A stretch of 64,000 nucleotides of DNA from Pseudomonadales bacterium (GTDB lineage Bacteria; Pseudomonadota; Gammaproteobacteria; Pseudomonadales; Pseudohongiellaceae). Positions 14,143 to 40,832 of this stretch are shown in pieces. Location of the stretch: the NCBI GenBank assembly GCA_022822865.1, contig JAJDYJ010000048.1, positions 1-64,000 of the forward strand. The letters run 5' to 3'. The position numbers were made by a program, and so were the translations under genes. Numbering within the stretch: position 1 is the stretch's first letter; every line of letters starts with the position of its first letter. The notes below the pieces were generated by a model that saw only the letters and a list, made by a program, of their open reading frames with translations, made no database searches and had not been told where the DNA came from.

Positions 14143-14257
14143 AATTTTTCAGTCAAGTTTAGGGTCAAACTAACAGATTCATTAAAGTACGGAATTCTTT
14201 AGTTTGCGGTGCGATGCTGCTACCGTTGGCGTTGAGAATCGAGCCTGGGTACCTGGT

Positions 14258-15598
14258 GTGACTGAACTCGCAAGATTGCATGACAGGAAGGTCGTCACCG
14301 AACTCCATCGGTTGTCGAAGTCCGATGACGAGTACTGGTCGTTTCGAGGACGCTCCACGCGGCATCGGATGCAGGGTTTGACCCAGTATCCCGCGATGAT
14401 GGTGCCGGCGATGCAAGCGGAACTCATGCACACCGTAACCGGCGCGGGCCGGGACATGAAGAGCGTGTTCGATCCGTTCGCGGGCTCCGGAACGACACTC
14501 GTCGAAAGCATGCGTTTGGGGTTGAACTATACCGGATATGACATCAATCCACTGGCGGTGCTGTTCTGCAAGACTAAGGCCGGCCCCTTCCACACGCGGA
14601 GGCTTGAAAAAGCAATAAGGGTAGTTCTGGAAAAGGCGAAAGCGGACCGGGGCAGAAAAGTCGAGGCGGACTTTCCTGGATTGAAAAAATGGTTTAGTCC
14701 CCTGGCCATAACGGAGCTCTCAAGAATCCGAAGAGCCGTTCGTGAGGTAGATCACAAATGGTGCAGACGGGTACTTTGGACAGGTCTCGCGGAAACCGTT
14801 CGGCTAACCAGCAACTCTCGAACATCGACTTTCAAGCTTCACATCCGAAGCAAGGAAGACCTTGATTCTCGTATCGTAAGCCCTCTTGAGACCTTTCATG
14901 AGGTAATGCGTGGAATCAGTGATCGCCTGGGAGAGGAAGCCGAAAAGCTCAAGGCGGCGGATCGTATTTCGGAGAACGGCCACTATCGCGGTAACGTCAC
15001 CATTCGGTTACGCAATTCCACCGAGCCGGACCCAAAGGGAGACGAGCATGACCTGCTGGTCACATCGCCCCCCTACGGAGACAACACCACAACGGTCCCA
15101 TACGGCCAGTATTCATTCCTTCCGCTTCAATGGATTGATCTGGAAGACATAGATGAGCAGGCAGGCACGGAGTGCATACAGTCGGCCTACTATATTGACG
15201 GACAAAGTCTGGGGGGATGCAGGAACAATGCAGCGCGGCGGATGGACGACATGCTGGAAATCAGCCCCAGTCTGAAGAAAACGCTGCACAAGCTGGAAAA
15301 GCTGCCTTCGGACAGGAAAAATCGAGTGGCGGCGTTCGTGCATGATCTGGACGCATCATTAGGCGCTATCGTCCCGTCGCTCCGTCAACACGGATACATG
15401 ATTTGGACGATCGGCAATCGACGCGTCGGCGGCAAGCCGGTTCCGACCGATAAAATTCTCAAGGAATTGCTGGAGGCCAAGGGAATTCGATGGGTGACCA
15501 AGCTTGAGAGAAAGATCCCAAGCAAACGGATGGCGACCAGAAACTCGATTGCAAGCACCATGCGTCGTGAAGCCATACTTGTGTTCAGGAAGACATAA
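14258..15598 (+). CDS. Amino-methyltransferase-type DNA methylase
   Basis: The 446-residue protein has the SAM-binding motif DPFAGSGTTL at about residue 72 and the catalytic motif TSPPYGD near residue 269, so it is a Rossmann-fold DNA methylase modifying adenine N6 or cytosine N4. Motif I comes first and about 190 residues lie between the two, giving an alpha-like order with a possible target-recognition region in between. I chose GTG 14258 because homology starts about 50 residues before motif I; a TTG at 14204 would add 18 residues. It is low in GC compared with purA and is followed 11 bp later by the dual-ATPase gene. No restriction nuclease is adjacent. The target site is unknown. Confidence 0.75.
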   Translation: MTELARLHDRKVVTELHRLSKSDDEYWSFRGRSTRHRMQGLTQYPAMMVPAMQAELMHTVTGAGRDMKSVFDPFAGSGTTLVESMRLGLNYTGYDINPLAVLFCKTKAGPFHTRRLEKAIRVVLEKAKADRGRKVEADFPGLKKWFSPLAITELSRIRRAVREVDHKWCRRVLWTGLAETVRLTSNSRTSTFKLHIRSKEDLDSRIVSPLETFHEVMRGISDRLGEEAEKLKAADRISENGHYRGNVTIRLRNSTEPDPKGDEHDLLVTSPPYGDNTTTVPYGQYSFLPLQWIDLEDIDEQAGTECIQSAYYIDGQSLGGCRNNAARRMDDMLEISPSLKKTLHKLEKLPSDRKNRVAAFVHDLDASLGAIVPSLRQHGYMIWTIGNRRVGGKPVPTDKILKELLEAKGIRWVTKLERKIPSKRMATRNSIASTMRREAILVFRKT

Positions 15599-15609
15599 GA
15601 AGTTCTGAC

Positions 15610-18138
15610 GTGTCGGACAACACTAAACCCATACGTTTCGATATCAATGCAGCAGTCGTCTTCCGGCTGGGCGAGGAGTTGATTACGGATTCCGTGCAGG
15701 CATTGGTTGAATTGGTGAAGAACAGCTACGATGCCGATGCTTCGTGGGTCACCGTAAAGATTGACACGGAGGGGGAGAATGAGCTGAAAAGAAAATTTGC
15801 CCAAGCAACAGGCACAATCGTCGTGGAGGATGACGGCCATGGAATGGATGAACCGGAGATTCGTAGGGGATGGCTGACCATTGCCAATTCGCCGAAAAGG
15901 GAGCAGAAAGCGGCCAAACAGGTTACGGAGAAGGGAAGGACTCCTATCGGAGACAAAGGACTGGGCCGTTTGGGTAGTCAAAGGTTGGCGCAACATGTGG
16001 AAATGGTCACTCGTCCCAAGTCAAGGCGGGACCAGGGCATCGAACACTATGTCGGGTTTTCCTGGAACGATTTCCGTGAGACCTCAAATCTGGGTGGAGT
16101 TCCCGTTGAGTGGGACGAGAAATTCGATTCCGGTAAAAAGCATGGGACAAAACTAGTACTTTCCGGTCTTAGAGAACCAGAGATTTGGCGGGCCGAAGGC
16201 TCTTTGAACGAACTCCAGCGAAAACTTTCCGGAATGATCTCGCCCTTTGAAGAATCGAAAGACTTCAAGGTCCATCTAGAGGTTGACGGAAAGCGCATGG
16301 AACTCGCTGAAATCACGAAGCGCGTGCGAGAGGCCGCGCTAGTGAAGTATGCATTTGAGTTCGATGGGGAGAGTATCCGAATACGAGGAATGGCGAAACT
16401 GAAGTACTTTAAACCAGTTTCTAAGCGAGATCAGGCACTATTCACAACGACTTGTCAAAATGACGATGGAAAAGCTCTTTATCGTTTTCTGCTTGACCGA
16501 CGCACAAAGGGGGGGCGCCCACCCATATTTGGCCTGGCAAGCAAAAAGGAGTGGTTTGTGGAGTTTGAAATTGCAAGAAAGCTTGACGATATCGACGGCG
16601 CGCGGCGTGACGAAGGTAAAGTCGTCGATCCTGGGCCATTTCGGGGAGAAGTCGATGCAGTATCGCTCGACAGTTCCGACTTTGACAGTTCGAAATTCGA
16701 AGGAACGGCAATAGGGCGTCAGTCCGAATACCGGAGGATGGTTCGGGATTTGGCTGGAATAAGAGTATACAGGGGCGGATTCGGAATTCGGGTAGGGGAG
16801 GACTGGCTGGAGTTGGGTAGGCAATGGACCGGAGGAGGCTCCTATTACGGTCTTCGCCCAGGAAATGTGTTGGGGTTTGTGGCGATAAGCGCATTCGACA
16901 ATCCCAACCTTGTGGAGACAACGAGCCGGGAAGGATTTCAAGTAACGCCGGCTTACGAAAACTTTTTCTTTCTATTGTCTCAGTTCGTCAAATTTGCCGG
17001 TGATACGCAGGAGTTTCTTCGACGCGGCGTTCTTGAGTTTCTCAAAGAACATAAGGAAAGAAGCGCGGGAATTAAACCGGAAGAGGACCATTCCAGTGTT
17101 TCGCGGCGAATTGACGATGTGGCGACCAGACTGTCGGCTCAGCAAGTCAAGGTGAAAAAGTTTTCTGGGCAACTGCGAAAGGCAGGAGCAGGCGCTGCAA
17201 AAACTCTTGATCGCGTAAGAAAGGAATTAGGGCCGGGCACAACCGAGAGTGCGTCGGTATCACATGTGTTAAAGGATCTGGAAGAGCAACTCGATCGCGT
17301 TTCGACCGCCGCGTCTACGGAAGAACGGGTGCTATATGAAGTCTCGTCCGTACTGGACGAGGCGTCAACTTTGAAGTCTACGCGAGAAATTCTCGATAAG
17401 CGGTGGGAGGTGCTCAACGAACAGGTCTCGGCGTTGTACGAGAGCGTTAGCTTGGGGCTGACCGCGGAAGTGCTGTCACACGAAATACACAACGTCGCGG
17501 ACCGCCTCGCCAAGAAAAGTTCAATCTTGTTGCGGCAGGTCAACAAAGGGGCGCGCAAGTCTTCAATCATCGCGTACATCGAGGAAGTGAGGTCTAGTGT
17601 CGCCACCATGCGGAAGCAGCTTTCTCACCTCACCCCGTCGCTTCGGTATCTGCGGGAGCAGAGGGACGAATTCGACCTTTCCGAGCTGATCGATAGTCAA
17701 ATTGAGTTCCATCAGACCAGACTTGAAGAAAACAATATCGAGGTTACAGCAGAAGTACTATCGCCTGGCGTCAAGATACATATGAACAAAGGAAAGATGA
17801 TGCAGGTATTCGATAACCTGATTCTCAATGCCGAATACTGGCTGAAAGAGGCGATCCGGTCTCGATCCGTTAAGCGTGGCGAGATAAAGATTGTCGTCGA
17901 TGGATGCTATGTACGAATTACGGACAATGGGAGAGGAGTGGACGAAAGTGTCGAGGAAACCTTGTTCGAGCCTTTTGTAACGATGAAAAGCAAGGGGGAA
18001 GGTCGTGGCCTTGGCCTGTTCGTTTGCCAGCAGCTACTCGATTCGGAATCTTGCCAAATTTCTCTTCTGCCTGATCGAAATGACCACGGAAGGCGCTTCA
18101 CATTTGAACTCGACTTTTCAGGGGCTGTAAATGGATGA
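15610..18138 (+). CDS. Dual GHKL ATPase: Hsp90/MORC-like plus histidine-kinase-like
   Basis: The 842-residue protein contains two Bergerat-fold modules. The N-terminal one has ALVELVKNSYDADASWV, DDGHGM and GDKGLGRLGSQRLA, as in Hsp90, MutL and MORC-type ATPases. A middle region and coiled-coil follow (about 490-620). The C-terminal part looks like a histidine kinase: an H-box-like LSHEIHN (H624), an N-box FDNLILNAEYW, DNGRGVD and the lid GEGRGLGLFVCQQLL. No transmembrane segment is visible, so it is cytoplasmic. It starts at GTG and overlaps the next gene by 8 bp. The likely role is ATP-dependent sensing with phosphotransfer to the downstream receiver-like protein; this is inference. Confidence 0.8.
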   Translation: MSDNTKPIRFDINAAVVFRLGEELITDSVQALVELVKNSYDADASWVTVKIDTEGENELKRKFAQATGTIVVEDDGHGMDEPEIRRGWLTIANSPKREQKAAKQVTEKGRTPIGDKGLGRLGSQRLAQHVEMVTRPKSRRDQGIEHYVGFSWNDFRETSNLGGVPVEWDEKFDSGKKHGTKLVLSGLREPEIWRAEGSLNELQRKLSGMISPFEESKDFKVHLEVDGKRMELAEITKRVREAALVKYAFEFDGESIRIRGMAKLKYFKPVSKRDQALFTTTCQNDDGKALYRFLLDRRTKGGRPPIFGLASKKEWFVEFEIARKLDDIDGARRDEGKVVDPGPFRGEVDAVSLDSSDFDSSKFEGTAIGRQSEYRRMVRDLAGIRVYRGGFGIRVGEDWLELGRQWTGGGSYYGLRPGNVLGFVAISAFDNPNLVETTSREGFQVTPAYENFFFLLSQFVKFAGDTQEFLRRGVLEFLKEHKERSAGIKPEEDHSSVSRRIDDVATRLSAQQVKVKKFSGQLRKAGAGAAKTLDRVRKELGPGTTESASVSHVLKDLEEQLDRVSTAASTEERVLYEVSSVLDEASTLKSTREILDKRWEVLNEQVSALYESVSLGLTAEVLSHEIHNVADRLAKKSSILLRQVNKGARKSSIIAYIEEVRSSVATMRKQLSHLTPSLRYLREQRDEFDLSELIDSQIEFHQTRLEENNIEVTAEVLSPGVKIHMNKGKMMQVFDNLILNAEYWLKEAIRSRSVKRGEIKIVVDGCYVRITDNGRGVDESVEETLFEPFVTMKSKGEGRGLGLFVCQQLLDSESCQISLLPDRNDHGRRFTFELDFSGAVNG

Positions 18139-19897
18139 TGTGAAAACGCAACAGAGACGCATTAAAGCGGATGCGGAAAAGTTACTTGAAAGTGTTGGGA
18201 TATCGCGGATCGTAGTAGTTGATGACGAGTATGCCGACAGTTTAGCGGACCTGCTTGGTATTTGTTCGGAGTTGGGAAGCCAAAATGCCGAAAAGCTACA
18301 ACACCTTGATGCGGTGAATTTCGAGAATACAGAAGAAGTATGGAAGCATGATGTCGGGGAAGTTTGGGAATCTCTCAGCCAGTCTGAACGACAAAGCTTG
18401 TTATTGCAGGCTCAATCCTTAGAAGCAAGTGTAAAGCCTCAAGAATTCGAGAAAGAAGCAAGTAATCCGCAGGAGGACGAAAGTACTGATGCTAGGGCAG
18501 CAAACTGCCTTGAGGAAGTGCTTGGCAATCTTTCCAATTGCGAATTCATCACGCTATCTCACGCCATGTGGAAGGAGAAATCCCAATCTCTGCTATGCGA
18601 TGAAAAAGCGTCGGAAACGATACTGTTATTTGATCGAAATCTGTTCAGAGAGGGTGGCTCGCCGGATGAAGGTTTGAAGTTGCTACAGAAAATACCATCG
18701 ACGTTTACAGGCTATTGTGGCTTGATAACCCACACGGTATCGGTAGGAGGAGAACCAGAGGCTTGGAAATCTCTTTCAGGTGAATACCGCCTTGATCGTG
18801 AGAAATTTGTAATCATTTCAAAAGGGCGCCTTAACAGCGACCCACCTGACTATTTCGGTTTCCTTGGCATGCTGTGGTTGGTAGCAATGAGTCGTAGGCA
18901 TATTCTTGTCAGGAGGCAGGCTTGGTCCATATTCGAGAACTCGGTTGCCCAGGCAAAGGAAGCAGTTGAGGGACTTTCGCCTCTGGATTTCGACAAAATT
19001 GTATTCGAATCTTCTCGAAAGGAAGGAGTCGCTGAATCTGACACGCTTTTTCGTGTCTTCAGCATCCTTGTGCGTCGAGCGGCCCAAGAGCAGTTGCGCG
19101 GAGATAGCAGTTTCAGAGAGGCAGTAGAGGATGTGCGCAATGTCAGTGCAAAGTCGACGAGTATTGTAAATTCGCTTAGAAACACGAAGTTCTCAGAAGA
19201 AGCTGTACGAATTCAAAGATTTGAAATGTACGAAAGCGGAAGTGAACTCAACGGTGTCCATGCCCCTTTAGAATTGGGCGACGTCTTTGAGAACGTTTCC
19301 AACGGAAAACTGTATGTTCTTCTTACGCAACCTTGTGACCTGATGGTGCGGAATAACGGAAAACGAAGTTACGACAATCGGTTGGGTCGCATGGGAGCAT
19401 TAGTCGAACTAGTTTTTAATTCTGAGAAAACTGGGAGTAAATGGGGAAAGTTGGAATTTTTCCATGCAGATACTGATAAGTCGGCGTATGCCAACTTCGC
19501 AAGGGCACATCAAGTTCAATTATTGGTGTTAGATCTTTGCGTTTTTTCCACAGATGGCGAAGCTAAATTAGATGTCGATGGTCAGTGTCCTGATTTAGTC
19601 ATCGAATCATGGAAATCGAGGCATGCTCACATTGTACAGCGCTTCAGAACTGCACTTAAGGATCATCAGCAGCTTGAAGAGAAAGATATCGGCAAATCAC
19701 TGTCGTTACTAGCGCTCCCGAACCTTTCTACTTCTATTCCTATTGTGCCGGATGTGAAATCCAATAGGGTGCATTACGGAATCAAGCGAGTGTTAAGGCT
19801 ACGTCGACCGTGGTCGTCGGCATTGCTCACCGCCTATTCCCACTACATGGCTCGGGCCGCATTCGACCCTCAGTTCGAACAACTCGACGTTTCCTAA
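18131..19897 (+). CDS. Receiver-like protein, large, unknown output
   Basis: The 588-residue protein starts with a helix and then GISRIVVVDDEYADSL (about residues 24-39), which resembles the first strand and acidic pocket of a response-regulator receiver. A later segment ETILLFDRNLF (about residues 160-170) could carry the phospho-acceptor aspartate, with a long insertion between. The remaining 400 residues match nothing I recognise; they contain LYVLLTQPCDLMVR and no obvious DNA-binding motif. It overlaps the upstream kinase-like gene, which supports a paired function. AGA and other rare codons are common, in line with horizontal transfer. It could be an effector rather than a transcription factor. 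Confidence 0.6.
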   Translation: MDDVKTQQRRIKADAEKLLESVGISRIVVVDDEYADSLADLLGICSELGSQNAEKLQHLDAVNFENTEEVWKHDVGEVWESLSQSERQSLLLQAQSLEASVKPQEFEKEASNPQEDESTDARAANCLEEVLGNLSNCEFITLSHAMWKEKSQSLLCDEKASETILLFDRNLFREGGSPDEGLKLLQKIPSTFTGYCGLITHTVSVGGEPEAWKSLSGEYRLDREKFVIISKGRLNSDPPDYFGFLGMLWLVAMSRRHILVRRQAWSIFENSVAQAKEAVEGLSPLDFDKIVFESSRKEGVAESDTLFRVFSILVRRAAQEQLRGDSSFREAVEDVRNVSAKSTSIVNSLRNTKFSEEAVRIQRFEMYESGSELNGVHAPLELGDVFENVSNGKLYVLLTQPCDLMVRNNGKRSYDNRLGRMGALVELVFNSEKTGSKWGKLEFFHADTDKSAYANFARAHQVQLLVLDLCVFSTDGEAKLDVDGQCPDLVIESWKSRHAHIVQRFRTALKDHQQLEEKDIGKSLSLLALPNLSTSIPIVPDVKSNRVHYGIKRVLRLRRPWSSALLTAYSHYMARAAFDPQFEQLDVS

Positions 19898-19958
19898 CGA
19901 TTTTAGCCGTTACGGGCTTGTAACGGTATAGAATAGCTTTTCGGAGAGCTTGTGGATA

Positions 19959-20048
19959 TGGCGGAGGGAGTGGGATTCGAACCCACGAAACGGGGAGACC
20001 GTTGCCGATTTAGAAGATCGGTGCAATTAACCACTCTGCCATCCCTCC
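19959..20048 (-). tRNA. Class II tRNA with UCU anticodon and serine-like body
   Basis: The 90-nt gene has a perfect 7-bp acceptor (GGAGGGA/TCCCTCC), encoded CCA, discriminator G, a 3-bp D stem with GGTTAA loop, and a 5-bp T stem (GTGGG/CCCAC). The anticodon stem CCGAT/ATCGG encloses CTTCTAA, so the anticodon is UCU, complementary to the arginine codon AGA. The 18-nt variable region contains a 5-bp stem (AACGG/CCGTT), as in tRNA-Ser or tRNA-Leu; G73 favours recognition by seryl-tRNA synthetase. Arginine tRNAs normally have short variable loops. It could charge with serine and mistranslate AGA, or be inactive. The 3' end faces the low-GC block at 14-20 kb, a common arrangement for islands inserted at tRNA genes. 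Confidence 0.8.
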
Positions 20049-20065
20049 ACAGTTCTTCGAGCGTT

Positions 20066-20105
20066 CTAGGGGCCTTTGGGTCCCTAGGGCGCACCTAACT
20101 TTTTT
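20066..20105 (+). other. Hairpin followed by a T-run
   Basis: CTAGGG at 20066-20071 pairs with CCCTAG at 20082-20087, and a run of seven T follows about 12 bases later (20099-20105). The gap to the T-run is long for an intrinsic terminator. It lies just upstream of the minus-strand tRNA and may instead be part of its promoter region. The rest of 20106-20282 shows no gene. Confidence 0.3.
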
Positions 20106-20282
20106 TAAACAGGAGTAATAGCAATCGATTAATTTAATATTCAACGGCGCGCACACTCATTGTCGCACAAATCTGCCTCGAGGGTGAAATTTGGTCCTGG
20201 CAACGTTCCGTAACGGGTGAGACCCTTTCCTAACTCAAGTCTATCGGGAATTACGAATCTTATTGGATCCAGGCCGTAACGA

Positions 20283-28553: not shown

Positions 28554-29576
28554 ATGCACAGAAGACTAGCCGTTGATTTGTTCGCAGGTTCAGGAGGACT
28601 TACTGTCGGCCTGAAACAAGCTGGATTTTCCGTGGTCGGAGCCGTCGAATCGGACCCTCTTGCGGCTTCTACTTATCGTAAAAATCACCCTCGCGTTAAA
28701 CTTCTGGAAGAAGATATCAAGGTTCTCCAGCCAGCCGCGCTTGCAGAGTCTGCTCGATTCGTGATTGGCGAACTTGATTTGCTTTCCGGTTGCCCGCCCT
28801 GTCAAGGATTTTCGACTCTCAGAACACTGAACGGAAAAGTAGCAATCCATGATCCGCAGAATGATCTTGTCTTTGATTTCTTGCGGTTTGTCAGAGAATT
28901 GAAACCCAAAGCCGTAATGATGGAAAACGTGCCTGGTCTTTATGGCGATACCCGTTTAGCCTCCATACAAAAGCAGTTGTGTCGTGCTGGCTACCAGTCG
29001 GAAGCTAGAGTCTTGAATGCCCAGGATTTCGGTGTTCCTCAGCGACGCCTCCGAATGGTGCTAATTGCCTTGCGAGGCGCCAAACCTATATTTGCCAGAG
29101 GAAAAACACGCCGCCGAACTGTTCGCCAAGCTATCGGGCGCATGCCGGAGCCAGGACTAGGAAACGATCCACTTCACGACTACTCGGTCAAACGTTCTCC
29201 TCGCGTCAAGCAAATCATTGAGGCCATTCCACTGGACGGCGGCAGTCGAACCGCATTGCCCAAAAAACTCAAGCTAGACTGTCACACTAAAACAGATGGA
29301 TTTAAAGACGTGTACGGCCGAATGCGTTGGGCTTCCCAAAGCCCCACTATTACAGGAGGCTGCATAAATCCGTCAAAAGGCCGTTTTCTTCATCCAGAGC
29401 AGAACAGGCCGATTACCCTTCGCGAGGCCGCAATGCTCCAAGGCTTTCCCTTCAAGTACTACTTCAGCTTGGAACATGGACGATATCCAGCCGCTCAGAT
29501 GATTGGCAATGCGTTTCCACCCAAGTTTGCAGAACATCACGCTCGTGAAATTGCTGAATCTCTCGACGACCTCTAA
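28554..29576 (+). CDS. DNA (cytosine-5-)-methyltransferase
   Basis: The 340-residue enzyme has the C5-MTase motifs in order: I DLFAGSGGLTVGL, IV GCPPCQGFST with the catalytic Cys 83, VI MENVPGL, VIII QRRLRMVLI, IX RPITLREAAMLQGFP and X QMIGNAFPP. The target-recognition region between VIII and IX is short (about 90 residues). It methylates cytosine in DNA, probably to protect self-DNA. The gene is low in GC relative to the chromosome and lies 19 bp upstream of the helicase-nuclease on the same strand, which suggests a two-gene module. Confidence 0.95.
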   Translation: MHRRLAVDLFAGSGGLTVGLKQAGFSVVGAVESDPLAASTYRKNHPRVKLLEEDIKVLQPAALAESARFVIGELDLLSGCPPCQGFSTLRTLNGKVAIHDPQNDLVFDFLRFVRELKPKAVMMENVPGLYGDTRLASIQKQLCRAGYQSEARVLNAQDFGVPQRRLRMVLIALRGAKPIFARGKTRRRTVRQAIGRMPEPGLGNDPLHDYSVKRSPRVKQIIEAIPLDGGSRTALPKKLKLDCHTKTDGFKDVYGRMRWASQSPTITGGCINPSKGRFLHPEQNRPITLREAAMLQGFPFKYYFSLEHGRYPAAQMIGNAFPPKFAEHHAREIAESLDDL

Positions 29577-29595
29577 TAATCTAAATTACTTGAAC

Positions 29596-32535
29596 ATGCC
29601 AAACATTAACAAAATCCTGCGCCACGAGTTAAATCCCCAACAATTTGCTGCCGCTACTGATGCTGCCAGCGAAATCCTTACCCTGGCTTGCGCTGGCTCA
29701 GGAAAATCTAGAACGCTTGCTTATCGGATCGCGTGGCTTATCGCGGACCACGGTGCAAATCCTGACAGCATCGTTGCATTCACATTCACCCAAAAGGCTG
29801 CCGACTCTATCAAACTGCGTGTTTCCCAGGCTCTCGAAGCAACCGGTCTTAACCCGAATTACCTCGGCAGAATGTTCATCGGTACGATTCACTCATTCTG
29901 TCAGTACATTTTGGGAGATATCGACGCCCGTTACAGACAATTCGAAATTCTCGACGATAACAGGCTCAAACTCTTTCTTGTCGAGAACTACCCGGCCTTA
30001 GAATTGCATCGATTGAGATCTCGAGCGCGTGGCGGTGCCTATTTTGAAACTATCGCCGGAGCCGCACAGACCTGGAATCTCTACAACGAGGAACTCCTTT
30101 CACAGACTGACGTGGCATTCTATGACTCTAGACTGGGCACCTTCATCGCTACACTCAACGATTTGCTATTGGAAAAAGAGTTTCTAGACTTCTCATACAT
30201 GCAACGATTGGTCGTGGAAGCAATGCAGCAAGGCAAGGCAACTGATGTGGTATCCAGGATTCAACATCTCCTAGTGGATGAGTATCAGGACATCAACCCA
30301 GTTCAGGACGAACTGATAAAGCAACTCCACTCTTTTGGCAGTTCCCTTCTGGTCGTAGGCGACGATGATCAATCGATATACGGCTGGCGAGGTGCCGACG
30401 TTACACGAATACAATCATTCCTAACCCGGTTTAGTTCGGCAAGTTCTCATACAATTGGCACGAACTACCGCAGCACCGAACTGATTGTCAGAAGCGCTGA
30501 CGCGATGGCACACGCGGAACTGGGAGCCCAACGGAATGTGAAGAATCCCTCGGCAAATCCCTCTACTGAGCCAAACGAGTTTCGAAACCTCTGGTTTGAA
30601 GATCGATCAGACGAAGCGAGTTGGGTTGCCCAGACAATTAAAGCACTCATTGGTACCAAATATGTGGAAGACAACGGTCGAGTTCGTGGCTTGGCCCCGT
30701 CAGATTTTGCGATCCTTATGAGATCGACGCGCCAGCCAGAGCCTAATGACCATCCGCCACGTCATGTTGCCTATTCTGACGAACTGAAAGCACGAAGAAT
30801 TCCATACAGTCTGGAAGCTGGCGGTAGTTTGTTTGATCGAGAACAAGTAGCTGTAATGAAAACCGCTTTCGAGCACTTGCGAAACGATACGCCAGACCGA
30901 ACGACTGTTTCCGAATTTTTCATGTCAGAAGTACGGCCTGTATTTCCTTCTTCAGACTTCGCCAAACTCGCTTCAGTGTTTTCTGAATGGGGGCGAATGA
31001 TCCATGCACCCGTAACGCCTGGACAGCCGAGACGACGAGTGTATCCTCAAAACCTCGTATTTGACCTCCTTGAAGCCTTTGGACTAGCTCAATCAGATTT
31101 CGATCAAGCGATTGTTCAAAATCTTGGAGTATTCAGCCGCATCGTACAGGACGTTGAGACTGTCTTCCCAAGTGTTGACAGCAAAAAACGCTTCGAAAGC
31201 ATCCTAAACTTCCTTTCTGTCGTTGCAAATAAAGGCTATGACACCAGTTCGAATGAAATCCTCAGTCGGCCGGATGCAGTCACAGTTTCAACCGTTCACA
31301 AAATGAAAGGTCTTGAGTTTCCGGTAGTATTCGTAGTCGATGTAGAAGCACGACGCTTTCCCAAAGATCGAAGTGGGTACTCCGGCTGGATACCTGAGCC
31401 TCTATTGCAATCCTCTCTTTCTAGAGGAGCTTACCAATCCACGCGCGAAGAAGAAGCCCGGCTGTTTTACACAGCACTTACAAGAGCTGAGAGATACCTA
31501 TACGTAACCGGGTCCGAACAAGTTCCCGGTGGAAAGCGCCGTATGCGAGCATCACCATTTGCTGCCCTCCTCAATGATCCCGCTATTTCAACTGATCCTG
31601 GGATCGCACCACCCTCTGTCGGAAAGGCACCACCACAACAGAGAGTTGATGCGATCAATTTTCCAACCAGCTTTTCTGACATCAAATACTATCTTCGATG
31701 CCCAATGGATTATCGGTTTAGAAAGGTATTGGGATTCAGTCCGGCAATTCCCGACCTGTTCGGATTCGGATCCACGGTTCACGCTTCGATCGGGAAGCTT
31801 CACCAAAAATTTACCAATGCTGTTCCCAGTGTGTCCGACGCGGAAAGGATTGCGGAAGATATTTTCAACTTGAAGCACGTAATTCCAAGTCGCAATCCGA
31901 ACACCAACCCTGGCCCCTACGAGCGTGCGAAAAATAGGGCTAAAAGCTTGGTCATGGATTACGTAAAAGAGTTTGCTTCTGACTTTGCTCAAAGTAGGCA
32001 GCTTGAAGCGCGTTTTGAGATTCCCGCCAAAGGTACAGTTGTCTCAGGTGTAATAGACCTTATGATCAAGGAAGACAAAAATGGGAACATTGTCGATGCC
32101 TGTGTCATTGACTTCAAGACAATGGAAGGTGGTAAAAAACCTCAAAATAACTCGGCATTAGATTGGACAGAACTAGCCCTACAAGTTCAACTATATGCCA
32201 AGGCAGCTGTTGACATCTTGGGAAACGTTATCGATTCAGGCTTTGTTCACCTCCTTAAAGATGGTCAGCGGGTCCAAGTGCCAATTACGGACGATGCCGT
32301 TGATTCCGCAATTTCCAATATTGAATGGGCTGTGGACAGAATTGTAGATCAAGATTTTCCCATGCGTCCTTCTAAACCCAAGTGCGATGCTTGTGATTTC
32401 AATAAGATATGCTCCATGAAGCCGCAAAATTTTTCGGATCAAACCACACCGCCAGCTCTTCATACTCCTGTTCAATCCGGCAGAAAATTTGTCGCATGTT
32501 TCGATAACTTCGACAAGAATTTTTCTAACCGCTAA
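29596..32535 (+). CDS. UvrD-like helicase with PD-(D/E)XK Fe-S nuclease domain
   Basis: The 979-residue protein joins a superfamily 1 helicase to a nuclease. Helicase motifs are I (CAGSGKSRT, residues 31-40), II (LVDEYQDINP), III (VGDDDQSIYGWRG) and VI (LFYTALTRAE). After about residue 690 comes a Cas4/AddB-like nuclease: C702 in RCPMDYRF, then the PD-(D/E)XK site with D839-F-K841, then C930, C933 and C939 in CDACDFNKIC, giving four cysteines for a 4Fe-4S cluster. The length and order match AddA/AddB-type fusions seen in defence loci. The nearest in-frame ATG with homology is 29596; an upstream TTG is possible. With the adjacent methyltransferase it could form a restriction-like system acting on unmethylated DNA. 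Confidence 0.85.
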   Translation: MPNINKILRHELNPQQFAAATDAASEILTLACAGSGKSRTLAYRIAWLIADHGANPDSIVAFTFTQKAADSIKLRVSQALEATGLNPNYLGRMFIGTIHSFCQYILGDIDARYRQFEILDDNRLKLFLVENYPALELHRLRSRARGGAYFETIAGAAQTWNLYNEELLSQTDVAFYDSRLGTFIATLNDLLLEKEFLDFSYMQRLVVEAMQQGKATDVVSRIQHLLVDEYQDINPVQDELIKQLHSFGSSLLVVGDDDQSIYGWRGADVTRIQSFLTRFSSASSHTIGTNYRSTELIVRSADAMAHAELGAQRNVKNPSANPSTEPNEFRNLWFEDRSDEASWVAQTIKALIGTKYVEDNGRVRGLAPSDFAILMRSTRQPEPNDHPPRHVAYSDELKARRIPYSLEAGGSLFDREQVAVMKTAFEHLRNDTPDRTTVSEFFMSEVRPVFPSSDFAKLASVFSEWGRMIHAPVTPGQPRRRVYPQNLVFDLLEAFGLAQSDFDQAIVQNLGVFSRIVQDVETVFPSVDSKKRFESILNFLSVVANKGYDTSSNEILSRPDAVTVSTVHKMKGLEFPVVFVVDVEARRFPKDRSGYSGWIPEPLLQSSLSRGAYQSTREEEARLFYTALTRAERYLYVTGSEQVPGGKRRMRASPFAALLNDPAISTDPGIAPPSVGKAPPQQRVDAINFPTSFSDIKYYLRCPMDYRFRKVLGFSPAIPDLFGFGSTVHASIGKLHQKFTNAVPSVSDAERIAEDIFNLKHVIPSRNPNTNPGPYERAKNRAKSLVMDYVKEFASDFAQSRQLEARFEIPAKGTVVSGVIDLMIKEDKNGNIVDACVIDFKTMEGGKKPQNNSALDWTELALQVQLYAKAAVDILGNVIDSGFVHLLKDGQRVQVPITDDAVDSAISNIEWAVDRIVDQDFPMRPSKPKCDACDFNKICSMKPQNFSDQTTPPALHTPVQSGRKFVACFDNFDKNFSNR

Positions 32536-35554: not shown

Positions 35555-36327
35555 GGGGGAGCCTTGCGGCGTTCTTGGCGCCGCTTCTACTCAGTGTCGC
35601 GGCAACGATCGCGACAGCGGCATCGGTCCAGGCGCAATCGTCCAAAGTGCTGGACGCGACGGACCACGCCGAACTGCGTGCGGAAGTGCAACGGGACGGA
35701 CTGGTGCGCGTGGCGCTGCTGCATGACCGCATCGCGCGGGTCGTCCACGGGCCCAACGCATCTTTTGGTGTGGAACACGACGCCAGTGCCGGCGACATCT
35801 TTTTGCGGCGCGCCGAGCCCGTCGAATCCGTTGCGGATGCTTTGCCGGAAAAACTCTATATCGGCTCCGAACGCGGATTCACCTATGCGCTGCGTCTGAC
35901 GCCCGCCGCGGGCGGGGCCGCGCAATTGCTGATCCGGAATCCGGCTATCGACGAACCCGGAAATCCGGCTGCGGCTATTGGCGGCGATGCCCGCGTGTCC
36001 GAAATCGCGAACCTGGTCCGGGCGGTGGCGAACCGCGAGCCCCTGCCGGGGTTTTGGGTCGAGCCGGGCGGCCGGGACGCGGTTCCGTTGCCGGGCGTCG
36101 TCCTGTTCGAATCCTGGCGGGGCGCGCATTGGGAGGCGCTGGTGCTGGCGCTCGATCCCCAAAACGCCGTTTTCGATGCGGCGGCGCTGGCAGGTCATTT
36201 TCCATCCGGGATCGTGGCCGCCTGGATTGACGGGTTGGACGCATCCGGGACACGTCTGGCCGTGATCGTGCGCAACCGGCCCGAAGAACGCGCAATGCGT
36301 GGAGGAGCGGATCATGCCGGGCGCTAA
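35551..36327 (+). CDS. traK: Outer-membrane secretin-like protein TraK
   Basis: The 258-residue protein has a signal peptide (residues 1-29, ending VQAQS) and a beta-rich body. The placement between traE and traB and the length match F-type TraK (VirB9-like), which forms the outer-membrane ring with TraB and TraV. No distinguishing motif beyond order and size is visible, so this rests mainly on synteny. Confidence 0.75.
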   Translation: MRGSLAAFLAPLLLSVAATIATAASVQAQSSKVLDATDHAELRAEVQRDGLVRVALLHDRIARVVHGPNASFGVEHDASAGDIFLRRAEPVESVADALPEKLYIGSERGFTYALRLTPAAGGAAQLLIRNPAIDEPGNPAAAIGGDARVSEIANLVRAVANREPLPGFWVEPGGRDAVPLPGVVLFESWRGAHWEALVLALDPQNAVFDAAALAGHFPSGIVAAWIDGLDASGTRLAVIVRNRPEERAMRGGADHAGR

Positions 36328-37618
36328 TCCGAATCCATCCATCCCCGGGGGCGCCCAGACCGCCGATGGCGGCGCGGCGCGGGTGCGCAGCCGGCAGGTT
36401 GTGCTGTTTTGCGCACTGGTCGCCGTGGCGATGGTGGCGCTGGCGCTCTGGATGTCCGGCTCGGGCGGCGGGTCGTCGGCCCCGGTGGCGCGGATGTCCG
36501 CGGAAATCGCCGGATCCGACGCCGCCGAGGATAACTGGATCCAGCGTTCGGAAACCCGGCTCGGGGTGCTGGAAGGCGAGTTGCGGGAGTTCGAGCGGAG
36601 AAACGACGAGCTGGTCGAGCTGAACCGGCAACTGCGGGAGGAGATGGACGGCAATATCGAAAACGCGAGAAATGTCATCGACCGGCTTTCCCTGGTGATC
36701 GAGCAATCCGGGGATTCCGCTCCGCCGCCGGTCCCGCCGCGGATCGCGGCGCTTCCGGATCCCGGCGGCGATCCTTTCTTCACCGGCGGAAGCGCATTTG
36801 CGCCGCCGGTCTCGGCGGACCGGTCCACGGCGCCAACTCCCGGCGGCGGGATCGGTGCGCTGGAAGCCACACCCTCGCTGATCCGCCGCTTTGCGCTGGA
36901 CGAGGCGGCTTTTGCCCAACCGGAGGAGGCGGACGCCAAACCCCTTTCCCTATGGCTGCCGGCGGGCAGTCACGCCACCGCCATCGTGATCGCCGGGGTG
37001 GACGCTTCCGCGGGGGTGGTGTCCCAGGGCGATCCGCGCCCGGTGCTGCTGCGCGTCATCGGCCCCGCCTGGACCGCCGCCGAAGACGGCGCCGCCCAGT
37101 CGGTCGATCTCGCGGGCTGCACCCTCACCGGCGCCGCCTATGGCGAACTTTCCTCCGAAAAAGTCTATGTGCGCCTGCAAACGCTCACCTGTGCGGGACC
37201 GGAATCCGGGACGGTGGTGGAGACCTCCGTGGCGGGTTTTGTGGCGGGCATGGGCAAGGCTGGCGTGCGCGGTCCGGTGGTCAGCCGCGAGGGCGCGCTG
37301 GTGAAGCGGGCCTTTCTGGCCGGACTTGTGTCCGGCGCGGGCCAGGGGGTGGCGACCGCGTTTTCGCCAACGGCGATCGCCACGGGGGGCAACCGCGCCG
37401 CGGTGGCGAACACCGGAATGGCGGATATCGGTCGCGCCGGCATTGGCGCGGGGGCGGGTTCGGCCGGAACCCGGGTGTCGGACTACCTGATCCGCCGGGC
37501 CGAGCAGTACCAGCCCGTCATACAACTGCGGGCGGGCACGGAAGTGACCGTGGTGTTTCTGGAGGGCACGCGGCTCGACGGCCGGCCTGTATCCAACCCT
37601 GTGCGGAGTGAACAATGA
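36314..37618 (+). CDS. traB: Conjugative core protein TraB
   Basis: The 434-residue protein has a cytoplasmic N-terminus, one transmembrane segment (about residues 29-48), a helical coil (EGELREFERRNDELVELNRQL), a Pro-rich region, and a C-terminal VirB10-like beta domain with LLRVIGPA and a Gly/Ala-rich antenna helix (SGAGQGVATAF). TraB spans the inner and outer membranes as the core-complex scaffold. I used ATG 36314, preceded by GGAG; a GTG at 36299 is also in frame. It overlaps traK by 14 bases. Confidence 0.85.
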   Translation: MPGANPNPSIPGGAQTADGGAARVRSRQVVLFCALVAVAMVALALWMSGSGGGSSAPVARMSAEIAGSDAAEDNWIQRSETRLGVLEGELREFERRNDELVELNRQLREEMDGNIENARNVIDRLSLVIEQSGDSAPPPVPPRIAALPDPGGDPFFTGGSAFAPPVSADRSTAPTPGGGIGALEATPSLIRRFALDEAAFAQPEEADAKPLSLWLPAGSHATAIVIAGVDASAGVVSQGDPRPVLLRVIGPAWTAAEDGAAQSVDLAGCTLTGAAYGELSSEKVYVRLQTLTCAGPESGTVVETSVAGFVAGMGKAGVRGPVVSREGALVKRAFLAGLVSGAGQGVATAFSPTAIATGGNRAAVANTGMADIGRAGIGAGAGSAGTRVSDYLIRRAEQYQPVIQLRAGTEVTVVFLEGTRLDGRPVSNPVRSEQ

Positions 37619-38211
37619 ATACTGAATCCAGCCAAATCCCCTGCCGGTCCCTTTTTCCGGGATTGGGCTTGCTGCTGACCCTGGCAAGCTGCGGCGCCGG
37701 CCATGTGGGCGAGGCCTGGCAGTGTCCGCTCACCCAGGGCAGCCAATGCATCAGTGTCGAGCGGGCGGACCCGGCGGTCCGGCCGCTGGCGCAGCCCACC
37801 GCGTTGGCGCCGTTGGCGCTGGATTCGGCCCGGGTATCGGGTGCGGAAACGACCGGAACGGCGTCCGCGGCGGCAGCGGTCCAGGGACCTGATGCGAGAG
37901 ATGGGGCCGCATCGGAGAAACACGAATTCTGCTCATCGAGTTGCAATCCGGTGGGGCGGTTATGGCGCTGGCTGACTGGTGGCGACAGCCGCATATCGGC
38001 GGGCGCCGGCGATGTCGCCACGGAAGCGGCGCCGCCAGAGGAAACTTCATCGGCACACGTCACCGGAATCCCGACCGTCGCCGATGCCCGCATTCTGGAA
38101 AAAATCGGCCGCGTCTGGATCGCCCCCTGGGTGGACGCCGCCGGCGTGTACCGCGAAGGCGCCTGGGTGCGCATCGTGCTTTCTCCCGCAACCTGGCGGA
38201 GACCGCACTGA
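37615..38211 (+). CDS. traV: Conjugative outer-membrane lipoprotein TraV
   Basis: The 198-residue lipoprotein has a signal sequence with lipobox LASC (C26) and a Cys-containing periplasmic part, with DARILEKIGRVWIAPWVD near the C-terminus, the TraV pattern. TraV links TraK to the membrane through its lipid anchor (VirB7 analogue). It overlaps traB by ATGA and touches traC. Confidence 0.8.
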   Translation: MNTESSQIPCRSLFPGLGLLLTLASCGAGHVGEAWQCPLTQGSQCISVERADPAVRPLAQPTALAPLALDSARVSGAETTGTASAAAAVQGPDARDGAASEKHEFCSSSCNPVGRLWRWLTGGDSRISAGAGDVATEAAPPEETSSAHVTGIPTVADARILEKIGRVWIAPWVDAAGVYREGAWVRIVLSPATWRRPH

Positions 38212-40832
38212 TGCTTTCGCGCTTTCTGGAGTTGTTCGACGGCCCGGCGGGTCTCGCACCCTGGTCGCCGCCCCAATCCCCCGCGGCCCTTCCGGCCCTG
38301 CTGCCCTGGCGCGCTTTCGACGAGGTCAGCGGACTTTTTGTCAACGCGGCCAGCATCGGCTTTGTGCTGGAAATCCCCCCGTTCGCCGGCATCGAGGCGG
38401 AAACCCTCGAAGCGCTGTCCGGCGCGCTGGCCGACGCCGCGCCCACGAACTGCGCCATACAGGTCATTCACTGGGCGAGCCCAAGGTTCGGGGCGGCGCT
38501 GGCGGACTGGTCAAAACACCGCAAAAGTGCCGGGGCGGCCCAGGCGGCCATGGCGGGCTCGCGGGAGAGGATGCTGCAACACGCGGGGTGGCGTCCGCTG
38601 CGCGAAGGCGGTCCGCCTTTCACCTTGTCCGATTTTCGCGTGTTTTTGTGCGCCACGCTTGCCGGTGGGCCGGGACCCGCGCCGGAAACCGCCCTGCACG
38701 CCTTCCGGCGGGCGCTGGAGGGCACGCTGGCCTCGGTGGGCGCCGCGGCGCGGCGGATCGGGCCCGACGCGCTGCTTTCGCTGACCGCCGAATGGACCGC
38801 GCCCAACATAAAAGGCGCGGAAGACGGCGGATTGTTGCGCCCGCGCCGCCGCTGGTCGCCCCTGGATCCCATCCATGAACAATGCGCCGCGCCGGGCCAC
38901 GCGTTTTCGGTCACGCCAAGGGAACTGGTTTTTTGCCATCCGGACGGGGAAGACGTCGCCGCGCGGGTGCTTTCGGCCGCCGCTTTCCCCGAAGTCTGGC
39001 CCGGCTGGCGCGGCAACGCGCTGCTGGGGGATTTTTTCCGCGGCTTCCTGCAACCCGGCTGCCCGGTGCTCACCTGCCTGACGATCTTCACCGGCGGCGG
39101 GGACGCCGCGGAGCGCGCGTTCCTGAAAGCCGCGCGGGCGACCCAGCAGGCCGGAACCGGCATCGCGAAATACCTCCCCGGACTGCCCGAAAAAGCCCGG
39201 GACTGGCAGACCGTCACGACCCGCCTCAAGGAGGGCGAGCGCCTGGTCCGGGTCTTTTATTCCGTCTGCGCCTACGCCCCCAGAACCGCCATCGAAGAGG
39301 CCGAATCCGCCGTGCGGGCCATTTATCACGGCCAGGGCTGGCGTCTGGCCTCCGAGCGTTTTGTGCAACTGCCCGGCTGGCTCGCCTGCCTGCCCATGCT
39401 GCCCGCGGGCGGTCTGGATGCGGATTTTGAACGGATGGGGCGGCTCAAAACCCTGCCCAGCGGCGCCGCGATACATCTGGCCCCGATCCACGGCGAATGG
39501 CGCGGCCAGGGTTATTCGACCGAATCACCCCCCGCGCTGCTCCTGCTCGGCCGCCGGGGCCAGCCCGCCGGCTGGAGTCCTTTCGGGAACACCGCCGGCA
39601 ATTTCAATGTCGCGGTCACCGGAAAGTCCGGCTCCGGCAAATCCGTGCTGATGCAGGAACTGGTGGTGGGCATTGTCGGCGCGGGCGGGGAGGCCGTGGT
39701 CATCGACGACGGCCGCTCCTTCCAGCACACCGCCGAAGCCCTGGGCGGCGCCTTTATCGAATTCGGCCGGGACGCCGCCTGCCTGAATCCTTTCGGGATG
39801 ATCGACGCGGCCGCGGCGAAACGCGACGGCGATTACCGTGAAGAGTGTTTTGCCATGCTGGCCGGGGTGGTTTCCCGCATGTGCCGCAGCAAGGGGGCGG
39901 TCGACGACATCGAGGCGGCGTTGCTGAGCGAGGCTATTGCCGGAGCTTGGGATGCGGGCGGCAATGGAGCCGATCTCGGCGCCGTAAAGCGCCAACTGGA
40001 ACAAAAGGACGATCCGCGCGCCGCCGACATGGCCACCGCGCTGGGACCCTGGTGTCCGGGCGGGGCCATGGGGCGGTTGTTCGCGGGATCAGATGTGCCC
40101 GACCTGAAACGGGCGATCACGGTGTTTGAACTCGCCGAAATGAAGGGGCGGGGCGAGCTGCAGGCGGTGGTGTTGATGCTGGTGGTGTTTTTGGCCACCC
40201 AGCGGATGTACCACGGAAAACGGACAACACCCAAAACCATTGTCATCGACGAAGCCTGGGACCTGCTTTCCGGGGAGGGCAGCCGCGCCTTTCTGGAGGG
40301 CGCCGCCCGGCGCGCCCGAAAATACCGCGGCGCGCTCATCACCGGCACCCAGTCGGTGAACGATTTTTACGCCAACCCCGCCGCCCGGGCCGCCTGGGAA
40401 AACGCCGACTGGACGATCTTTCTGGCCCAGAAGGACGAGTCGGTGGAATTGCTGAAACAGGAGAAGCGGATTCACTGCGATCCGGGGATGGAGCAGGCCC
40501 TGAAAAGCCTGACGACGGTGGACGGGCAATTCGCCGAACTGGTGCTGCACGGCCCCGACGGCTGGCGCGTGGCGCGGCTGGCGCTGGATGCCTGGTCGGT
40601 GGCGCTGTTCTCGTCCCGGGGCCAGGTGTTCGCCGCGGTGGAGCAACTGAAGGAGCGGGGGCTTTCCACGGTGGAGGCTATCAACCGCATCGTGAACGGG
40701 GACCCGGCGAGCCAAACAGACGACGAAGACAAGTTTACCGCTTCCGGCACCGCCCAGGGCGCTGGCGCATTGTCCACCGCCACCCCGAATGAAGCCAAGC
40801 AAGAAATTGACAAGACAGGAGAACGCTTGTGA
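38211..40832 (+). CDS. traC: Type IV secretion ATPase TraC
   Basis: The 873-residue ATPase powers pilus assembly and DNA transfer (VirB4 analogue). After a Pro-rich N-terminal domain it has the Walker A loop TGKSGSGKSVLM starting near residue 470 and Walker B TIVIDEAWDLL (D680), followed by QSVNDFY and the C-terminal helical region. The preceding traV ends inside its start codon (TGATG). It is the largest ATPase in the set and ends in an overlap with the HD-like gene. Confidence 0.95.
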   Translation: MLSRFLELFDGPAGLAPWSPPQSPAALPALLPWRAFDEVSGLFVNAASIGFVLEIPPFAGIEAETLEALSGALADAAPTNCAIQVIHWASPRFGAALADWSKHRKSAGAAQAAMAGSRERMLQHAGWRPLREGGPPFTLSDFRVFLCATLAGGPGPAPETALHAFRRALEGTLASVGAAARRIGPDALLSLTAEWTAPNIKGAEDGGLLRPRRRWSPLDPIHEQCAAPGHAFSVTPRELVFCHPDGEDVAARVLSAAAFPEVWPGWRGNALLGDFFRGFLQPGCPVLTCLTIFTGGGDAAERAFLKAARATQQAGTGIAKYLPGLPEKARDWQTVTTRLKEGERLVRVFYSVCAYAPRTAIEEAESAVRAIYHGQGWRLASERFVQLPGWLACLPMLPAGGLDADFERMGRLKTLPSGAAIHLAPIHGEWRGQGYSTESPPALLLLGRRGQPAGWSPFGNTAGNFNVAVTGKSGSGKSVLMQELVVGIVGAGGEAVVIDDGRSFQHTAEALGGAFIEFGRDAACLNPFGMIDAAAAKRDGDYREECFAMLAGVVSRMCRSKGAVDDIEAALLSEAIAGAWDAGGNGADLGAVKRQLEQKDDPRAADMATALGPWCPGGAMGRLFAGSDVPDLKRAITVFELAEMKGRGELQAVVLMLVVFLATQRMYHGKRTTPKTIVIDEAWDLLSGEGSRAFLEGAARRARKYRGALITGTQSVNDFYANPAARAAWENADWTIFLAQKDESVELLKQEKRIHCDPGMEQALKSLTTVDGQFAELVLHGPDGWRVARLALDAWSVALFSSRGQVFAAVEQLKERGLSTVEAINRIVNGDPASQTDDEDKFTASGTAQGAGALSTATPNEAKQEIDKTGERL

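What the first reader, a model, noticed from the sequence alone, without database searches (positions are those of the whole stretch)
19959..20048. Serine-type class II tRNA with arginine anticodon UCU
The gene has an 18-nt variable arm with a stem, G73 and a full cloverleaf with CCA, all serine identity features, but an anticodon for AGA. Seryl-tRNA synthetase ignores the anticodon, so it could insert serine at AGA. Unusual serine-type tRNAs (allo-tRNAs) exist, but a 7/5-type version with UCU beside a low-GC, AGA-rich block is notable.
Basis: seen in the sequence. Interest (0 to 1): 0.65.

Follow-up and report, generated by a model that had tools for sequence, protein, structure and literature searches.

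The report
Serine-type tRNA carrying arginine anticodon
One bacterium carries, on a small acquired piece of DNA, an extra serine-type transfer RNA whose anticodon reads an arginine codon; if it is made it should occasionally put serine where arginine belongs, but the genome still reads that codon as arginine and the gene looks like a one-off, so it is an oddity rather than a new genetic code.

Summary
Confirmed: 20048-19959 (minus strand) is an intact 90-nt class II tRNA (RF00005, 59.5 bits) with anticodon UCU and a serine-type body. With the anticodon masked it scores 57.8 bits to a Ser profile, against 22.3 for the next isotype and 15.8 for Arg. It lacks A20, the main bacterial Arg determinant. 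Its nearest relatives are tRNA-Ser(UGA), at most 81% identical, with stems intact.

The genome also has a normal tRNA-Arg(UCU) and normal Ser(UGA), Ser(GCU) and Ser(GGA). AGA codons align with Arg in homologues, in core genes and in the neighbouring low-GC genes, so AGA has not been reassigned.

The gene lies inside a 6.1-kb insertion between purA and a ROK kinase, which are adjacent in four close relatives. The insertion also holds a methyltransferase / double-GHKL-ATPase / unknown cassette. Three other copies of that cassette have no tRNA beside them.

Only this one of 84 genomes of the genus has the gene. Best reading: an acquired, anticodon-shifted tRNA-Ser that, if expressed, is charged with serine and competes weakly at AGA. 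Expression, charging and function are untested. It resembles Streptomyces tRNA-ProX in principle; it is not an allo-tRNA (7/5 stem).

The parts
19959..20048 (-). Class II tRNA gene, Ser-type body, anticodon UCU, encoded CCA
   Evidence: ARAGORN, Rfam RF00005 59.5 bits, isotype profiles
20012..20014 (-). Anticodon UCU (AGA on the + strand)
   Evidence: sequence, ARAGORN
19987..20004 (-). 18-nt variable region; 5-bp stem AACGG/CCGUU, loop UCUCC, one unpaired U before C48
   Evidence: sequence, ARAGORN drawing, fold
20115..20144 (-). Weak promoter-like TTGAAT-N18-TATTAC in an AT-rich stretch (29% GC) 66 nt upstream of the tRNA; 8 of 12 consensus bases
   Evidence: read from the sequence; GC of stretch; below the threshold of the scan, which found no promoter
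14158..20282 (.). Approximate extent of the inserted segment (50.2% GC) between purA and the ROK kinase gene; the tRNA lies near its right end
   Evidence: purA and ROK adjacent in G104, G021, G056, G119; GC
14204..15598 (+). N6/N4 DNA methyltransferase (neighbour, same insertion)
   Evidence: PF01555 E 6.8e-10; PADLOC MTase_II E 2e-105
15610..18138 (+). Protein with two GHKL-type ATPase domains (neighbour, same insertion)
   Evidence: PF13589 and PF02518; partial N-terminal match to BbrUII/HgiDII restriction enzymes
18131..19897 (+). 588-aa protein of unknown family (neighbour, same insertion)
   Evidence: no Pfam, PADLOC or NCBIfam match; homologues in the same gene order elsewhere

Best explanation
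This is an extra, horizontally acquired tRNA-Ser gene whose anticodon has shifted to UCU. It lies in a 6.1-kb low-GC insertion next to purA. If transcribed, SerRS should charge it through the variable arm, G73 and acceptor stem, and it should then compete with the normal tRNA-Arg(UCU) at AGA (and weakly AGG), giving low-level Arg-to-Ser missense. AGA is rare in the host's core genes sampled, so the cost would be small. Shown here: the tRNA structure, the Ser-type body, the presence of normal tRNA-Arg(UCU), the insertion, and that AGA means Arg. Inferred: transfer from elsewhere, transcription, charging with serine, decoding in the cell, and any benefit. A dedicated function seems unlikely.
For: Anticodon-masked isotype profiles: Ser 57.8 bits, next Met 22.3, Arg 15.8; the genome's own Ser tRNAs score 42.5-74.7 with the Ser profile and its class I Arg(UCU) 51.5 with the Arg profile. 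Nearest bodies are tRNA-Ser(UGA), up to 81.1%; its own Ser(UGA) 73.0%; its own Arg(UCU) 48.4%. Position 20 is U, not A20; the bacterial Arg set is A20, C35, U/G36, A/G73 (PMC9976931). All stem pairs intact. Normal tRNA-Arg(UCU), Arg(CCU), Arg(ACG), Ser(UGA), Ser(GCU) and Ser(GGA) present. The same intergenic site is about 10-210 bp in four close relatives. Only this one of 84 genomes of the genus has it; no other true match in order or phylum samples. AGA aligns to Arg in the cassette (33/61 Arg, 3/61 Ser) and in core genes (19/20).
Against: No expression data; a simple scan finds no promoter or terminator, so it may be silent. The anticodon carries C35 and U36, two Arg determinants, and G73 is allowed for Arg, so some Arg charging cannot be excluded. 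The donor is unknown: best identity is only 81%. That the tRNA and the three genes came in one event is inferred from their sharing one insertion.
Confidence: 0.66

Rival explanations
1. Silent relic: the gene is not, or hardly, transcribed and the anticodon drifted without consequence after transfer.
For: No promoter or terminator found by the scan; single genome; long end branch in the tRNA-Ser tree (0.28 against a median of 0.092).
Against: All stem pairs intact, with paired changes relative to relatives, and CCA encoded, unlike a decayed gene.
Confidence: 0.2
2. Arginine tRNA with a long variable arm: charged by ArgRS through C35/U36 and used as a helper for AGA codons of the low-GC genes.
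For: C35, U36 and G73 present; viral contigs do carry UCU tRNAs with long variable arms; neighbouring genes use more AGA/AGG.
Against: No A20 here, whereas the long-armed viral examples read commonly show the GGATA D-loop of Arg tRNAs; the Arg profile gives only 15.8 bits.
Confidence: 0.08
3. AGA is partly or wholly reassigned to serine in this organism or in the island.
For: Only the tRNA itself.
Against: Normal tRNA-Arg(UCU) present; AGA aligns to Arg in cassette and core genes.
Confidence: 0.01
4. Island-borne missense or decoy tRNA with a role in defence (mistranslating AGA-rich invaders, or bait for a tRNA-cutting nuclease).
For: It sits in the same insertion as a putative DNA-modification cassette.
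Against: The cassette in R. etli, Hymenobacter and G159 has no tRNA beside it; the cassette's own genes are AGA-rich and would be damaged too.
Confidence: 0.05

Closest known systems
tRNA-ProX of Streptomyces/Kitasatospora (PMC11415595)
   Same: A bacterial tRNA whose body belongs to one amino acid and whose anticodon belongs to another; extra to the normal set; expected to mistranslate
   Different: Pro body, A33 and A34, co-encoded with its own ProRSx and found across a group of species; here Ser body, normal U33, no synthetase gene seen in the insertion, one genome
Allo-tRNA (Mukai et al. 2017, via PMC7609411)
   Same: Class II, SerRS identity elements, non-serine anticodon; some insert Ser in E. 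coli
   Different: Allo-tRNAs have an 8/4 or 9/3 acceptor branch; this one is a standard 7/5 tRNA-Ser
tRNA-Ser(UGA) of the same order
   Same: Body, length and arm layout; up to 81% identical
   Different: Anticodon UGA, two changes away from UCU
Viral-contig tRNA-Arg(UCU) with long variable arm
   Same: UCU anticodon and long variable arm
   Different: Arg-type D-loop with A20

Membership tests
tRNA-Ser (bacterial, class II, 7/5) | Long variable arm, G73, Ser-type body by profile | tested here: met
tRNA-Ser (bacterial, class II, 7/5) | Serine anticodon | tested here: not met
   UCU
tRNA-Ser (bacterial, class II, 7/5) | Charged with serine | not testable with these tools
   needs an aminoacylation assay
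tRNA-Arg | A20 plus C35, U/G36, A/G73 | tested here: not met
   U at position 20; C35, U36, G73 present
Allo-tRNA | 8/4 or 9/3 acceptor branch | tested here: not met
   7-bp acceptor and 5-bp T stem
tRNA-ProX | Pro body, A33/A34, paired ProRSx | tested here: not met
   Ser body, U33, U34; no synthetase among the genes of the insertion
AGA codon reassignment | AGA found at positions where homologues have the new amino acid, and loss of the old tRNA | tested here: not met

The most novel reading that the evidence does not exclude
A mobile island carries a deliberate missense tRNA that puts serine at AGA, hitting AGA-rich foreign messages (phage, plasmid) harder than the host's AGA-poor core genes.
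Probability: 0.04. Interest if true: 0.8.

Novelty: new variant of a known kind. Interest (0 to 1): 0.36.

Why it matters
Few natural bacterial tRNAs are known whose body and anticodon disagree, and the known Ser-type ones (allo-tRNAs) have unusual stems. A standard 7/5 Ser tRNA with an Arg anticodon in an otherwise normal genome would be a simple, testable case of built-in missense and of how a codon reassignment might begin. As it stands it is a single gene with no evidence of expression.

Tried and rejected
(1) Loss of the normal tRNA-Arg(UCU) or of tRNA-Ser(UGA), as in a true swap: both present. (2) AGA as serine in the cassette: homologues have Arg. (3) The tRNA as a conserved part of the cassette: absent beside three other cassettes. 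(4) The tRNA as an integration site: no stretch of 14 or more bases of it recurs elsewhere in the window. (5) A related mobile or phage copy: phage and plasmid matches are Ser-type at 60-80% identity; those whose anticodon I read are UGA, CGA or GCU. No match in E. coli genomes. (6) An 18-base exact scan of genome contigs gave 8 hits with no tRNA in them. (7) The G261 pattern hit is not a tRNA. G693 has a different class II UCU tRNA whose Ser score (28.4 bits) is hardly better than what the host's tRNA-Tyr gets with the Ser profile (25.1), so its type is open.

Full report
What is there. The window holds an intact tRNA gene at 20048-19959 on the minus strand (ARAGORN; Rfam RF00005 59.5 bits, E = 2.4e-10). 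It is 90 nt with an encoded CCA, a 7-bp acceptor stem, 5-bp T stem, 5-bp anticodon stem, and an 18-nt variable region with a 5-bp stem. The anticodon is UCU. The cloverleaf is also the minimum-energy fold, though its energy is only modestly better than shuffled sequence.

What type it is. I collected the tRNAs of all fetched loci, masked the anticodon and compared. The nearest 25 bodies are all tRNA-Ser, the best at 81.1% and of the UGA type; the host's own Ser(UGA) is 73.0%, its Arg(UCU) 48.4%. Profiles built for each isotype without the host's own genes give Ser 57.8 bits, Met 22.3, Cys 20.6, Arg 15.8. The control is imperfect: 29 of the host's 37 tRNAs were assigned to the expected isotype, but all 3 Ser and all 5 Leu were right; Tyr was wrongly put to Ser, at only 25.1 bits. 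In a tree of Ser tRNAs the gene falls beside a UGA type with weak support and a long end branch (0.28; median 0.092). Changing UGA to UCU needs two substitutions; GCU to UCU would need one, but GCU bodies are less similar (at most 75.8%).

Identity elements. The bacterial arginine set is A20, C35, U/G36 and A/G73; serine identity rests mainly on the variable arm and not on the anticodon (PMC9976931). Here position 20 is U, the arm is serine-like, and G73 is present; C35 and U36 are there as part of the anticodon. The host's normal tRNA-Arg(UCU) has the A20 D-loop (sequence). Serine charging is therefore the prediction; it was not measured.

The rest of the genome. Thirty-eight tRNA matches were found. 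They include normal Arg(UCU), Arg(CCU), Arg(ACG), Ser(UGA), Ser(GCU) and Ser(GGA). The gene is an extra one. The genome is 96% complete in 105 contigs, so absences would mean little, but none is relied on.

Setting. In G104, G021, G056 and G119 purA and the ROK kinase gene lie about 10 to 210 bases apart. Here they are 6.1 kb apart. The segment between has 50.2% GC and holds a DNA methyltransferase, a protein with two GHKL ATPase domains, a 588-aa unknown, and the tRNA near its right end. The same three genes in the same order occur on a Rhizobium etli plasmid, a Hymenobacter plasmid and in G159, without a tRNA in the stretches read. The tRNA is therefore not a fixed part of that cassette.

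Is AGA still arginine? At AGA codons of the three cassette genes, homologues have Arg in 33 of 61 cells and Ser in 3; CGN codons give 153 Arg and 8 Ser of 316. In four core genes against four relatives AGA aligns to Arg in 19 of 20 cells. This is a small sample but clear: no sign of reassignment.

How common. A class II UCU pattern found only this gene among 84 genomes of the genus, and among 390 of the order one further hit that is not a tRNA. A Ser D-arm plus UCU pattern found this gene and G693 in 369 genomes of the class, and only this gene in 398 of the phylum. These exact patterns miss divergent cases, so the counts are lower bounds. Viral contigs hold UCU tRNAs with long variable arms, commonly with the Arg-type GGATA D-loop.

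Expression. A sigma-70 and terminator scan found nothing. By eye there is a weak TTGAAT-N18-TATTAC in an AT-rich stretch upstream. Transcription is open.

Judgement. Most likely an acquired, anticodon-shifted tRNA-Ser that would act as a weak missense tRNA at AGA if expressed, or a silent relic. It works like, but is not a member of, the tRNA-ProX family (PMC11415595), and it is not an allo-tRNA because its acceptor branch is 7/5 (PMC7609411).

Noticed in passing
window 14204-19897: Three-gene cassette (methyltransferase, double-GHKL ATPase with a BbrUII/HgiDII-like N-terminus, 588-aa protein with no family) kept in the same order in another genome of the order (G159), Rhizobium and Hymenobacter; possibly an undescribed restriction or defence system.
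   Followed up: partly
window 28554-32535: Low-GC pair: cytosine-5 DNA methyltransferase followed by a UvrD-like helicase with a PD-(D/E)XK domain; possible second defence locus.
   Followed up: no
window about 36299-40832: F-type conjugation genes (TraB-like and TraC), suggesting an integrated conjugative element in the right part of the window.
   Followed up: no
L282 8097-8192 (G693): Another class II tRNA with anticodon UCU, a very long variable arm and no encoded CCA reported, in a different genome of the same class; isotype unclear.
   Followed up: partly
L283 and L284: Large viral contigs (342 and 246 kb) with a run of nine tRNA genes, including a Ser(UGA) similar to the one studied here.
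   Followed up: no
window 20208, 20274, 31010: The octamer CCGTAACG occurs twice near the right end of the insertion; meaning unknown.
   Followed up: no
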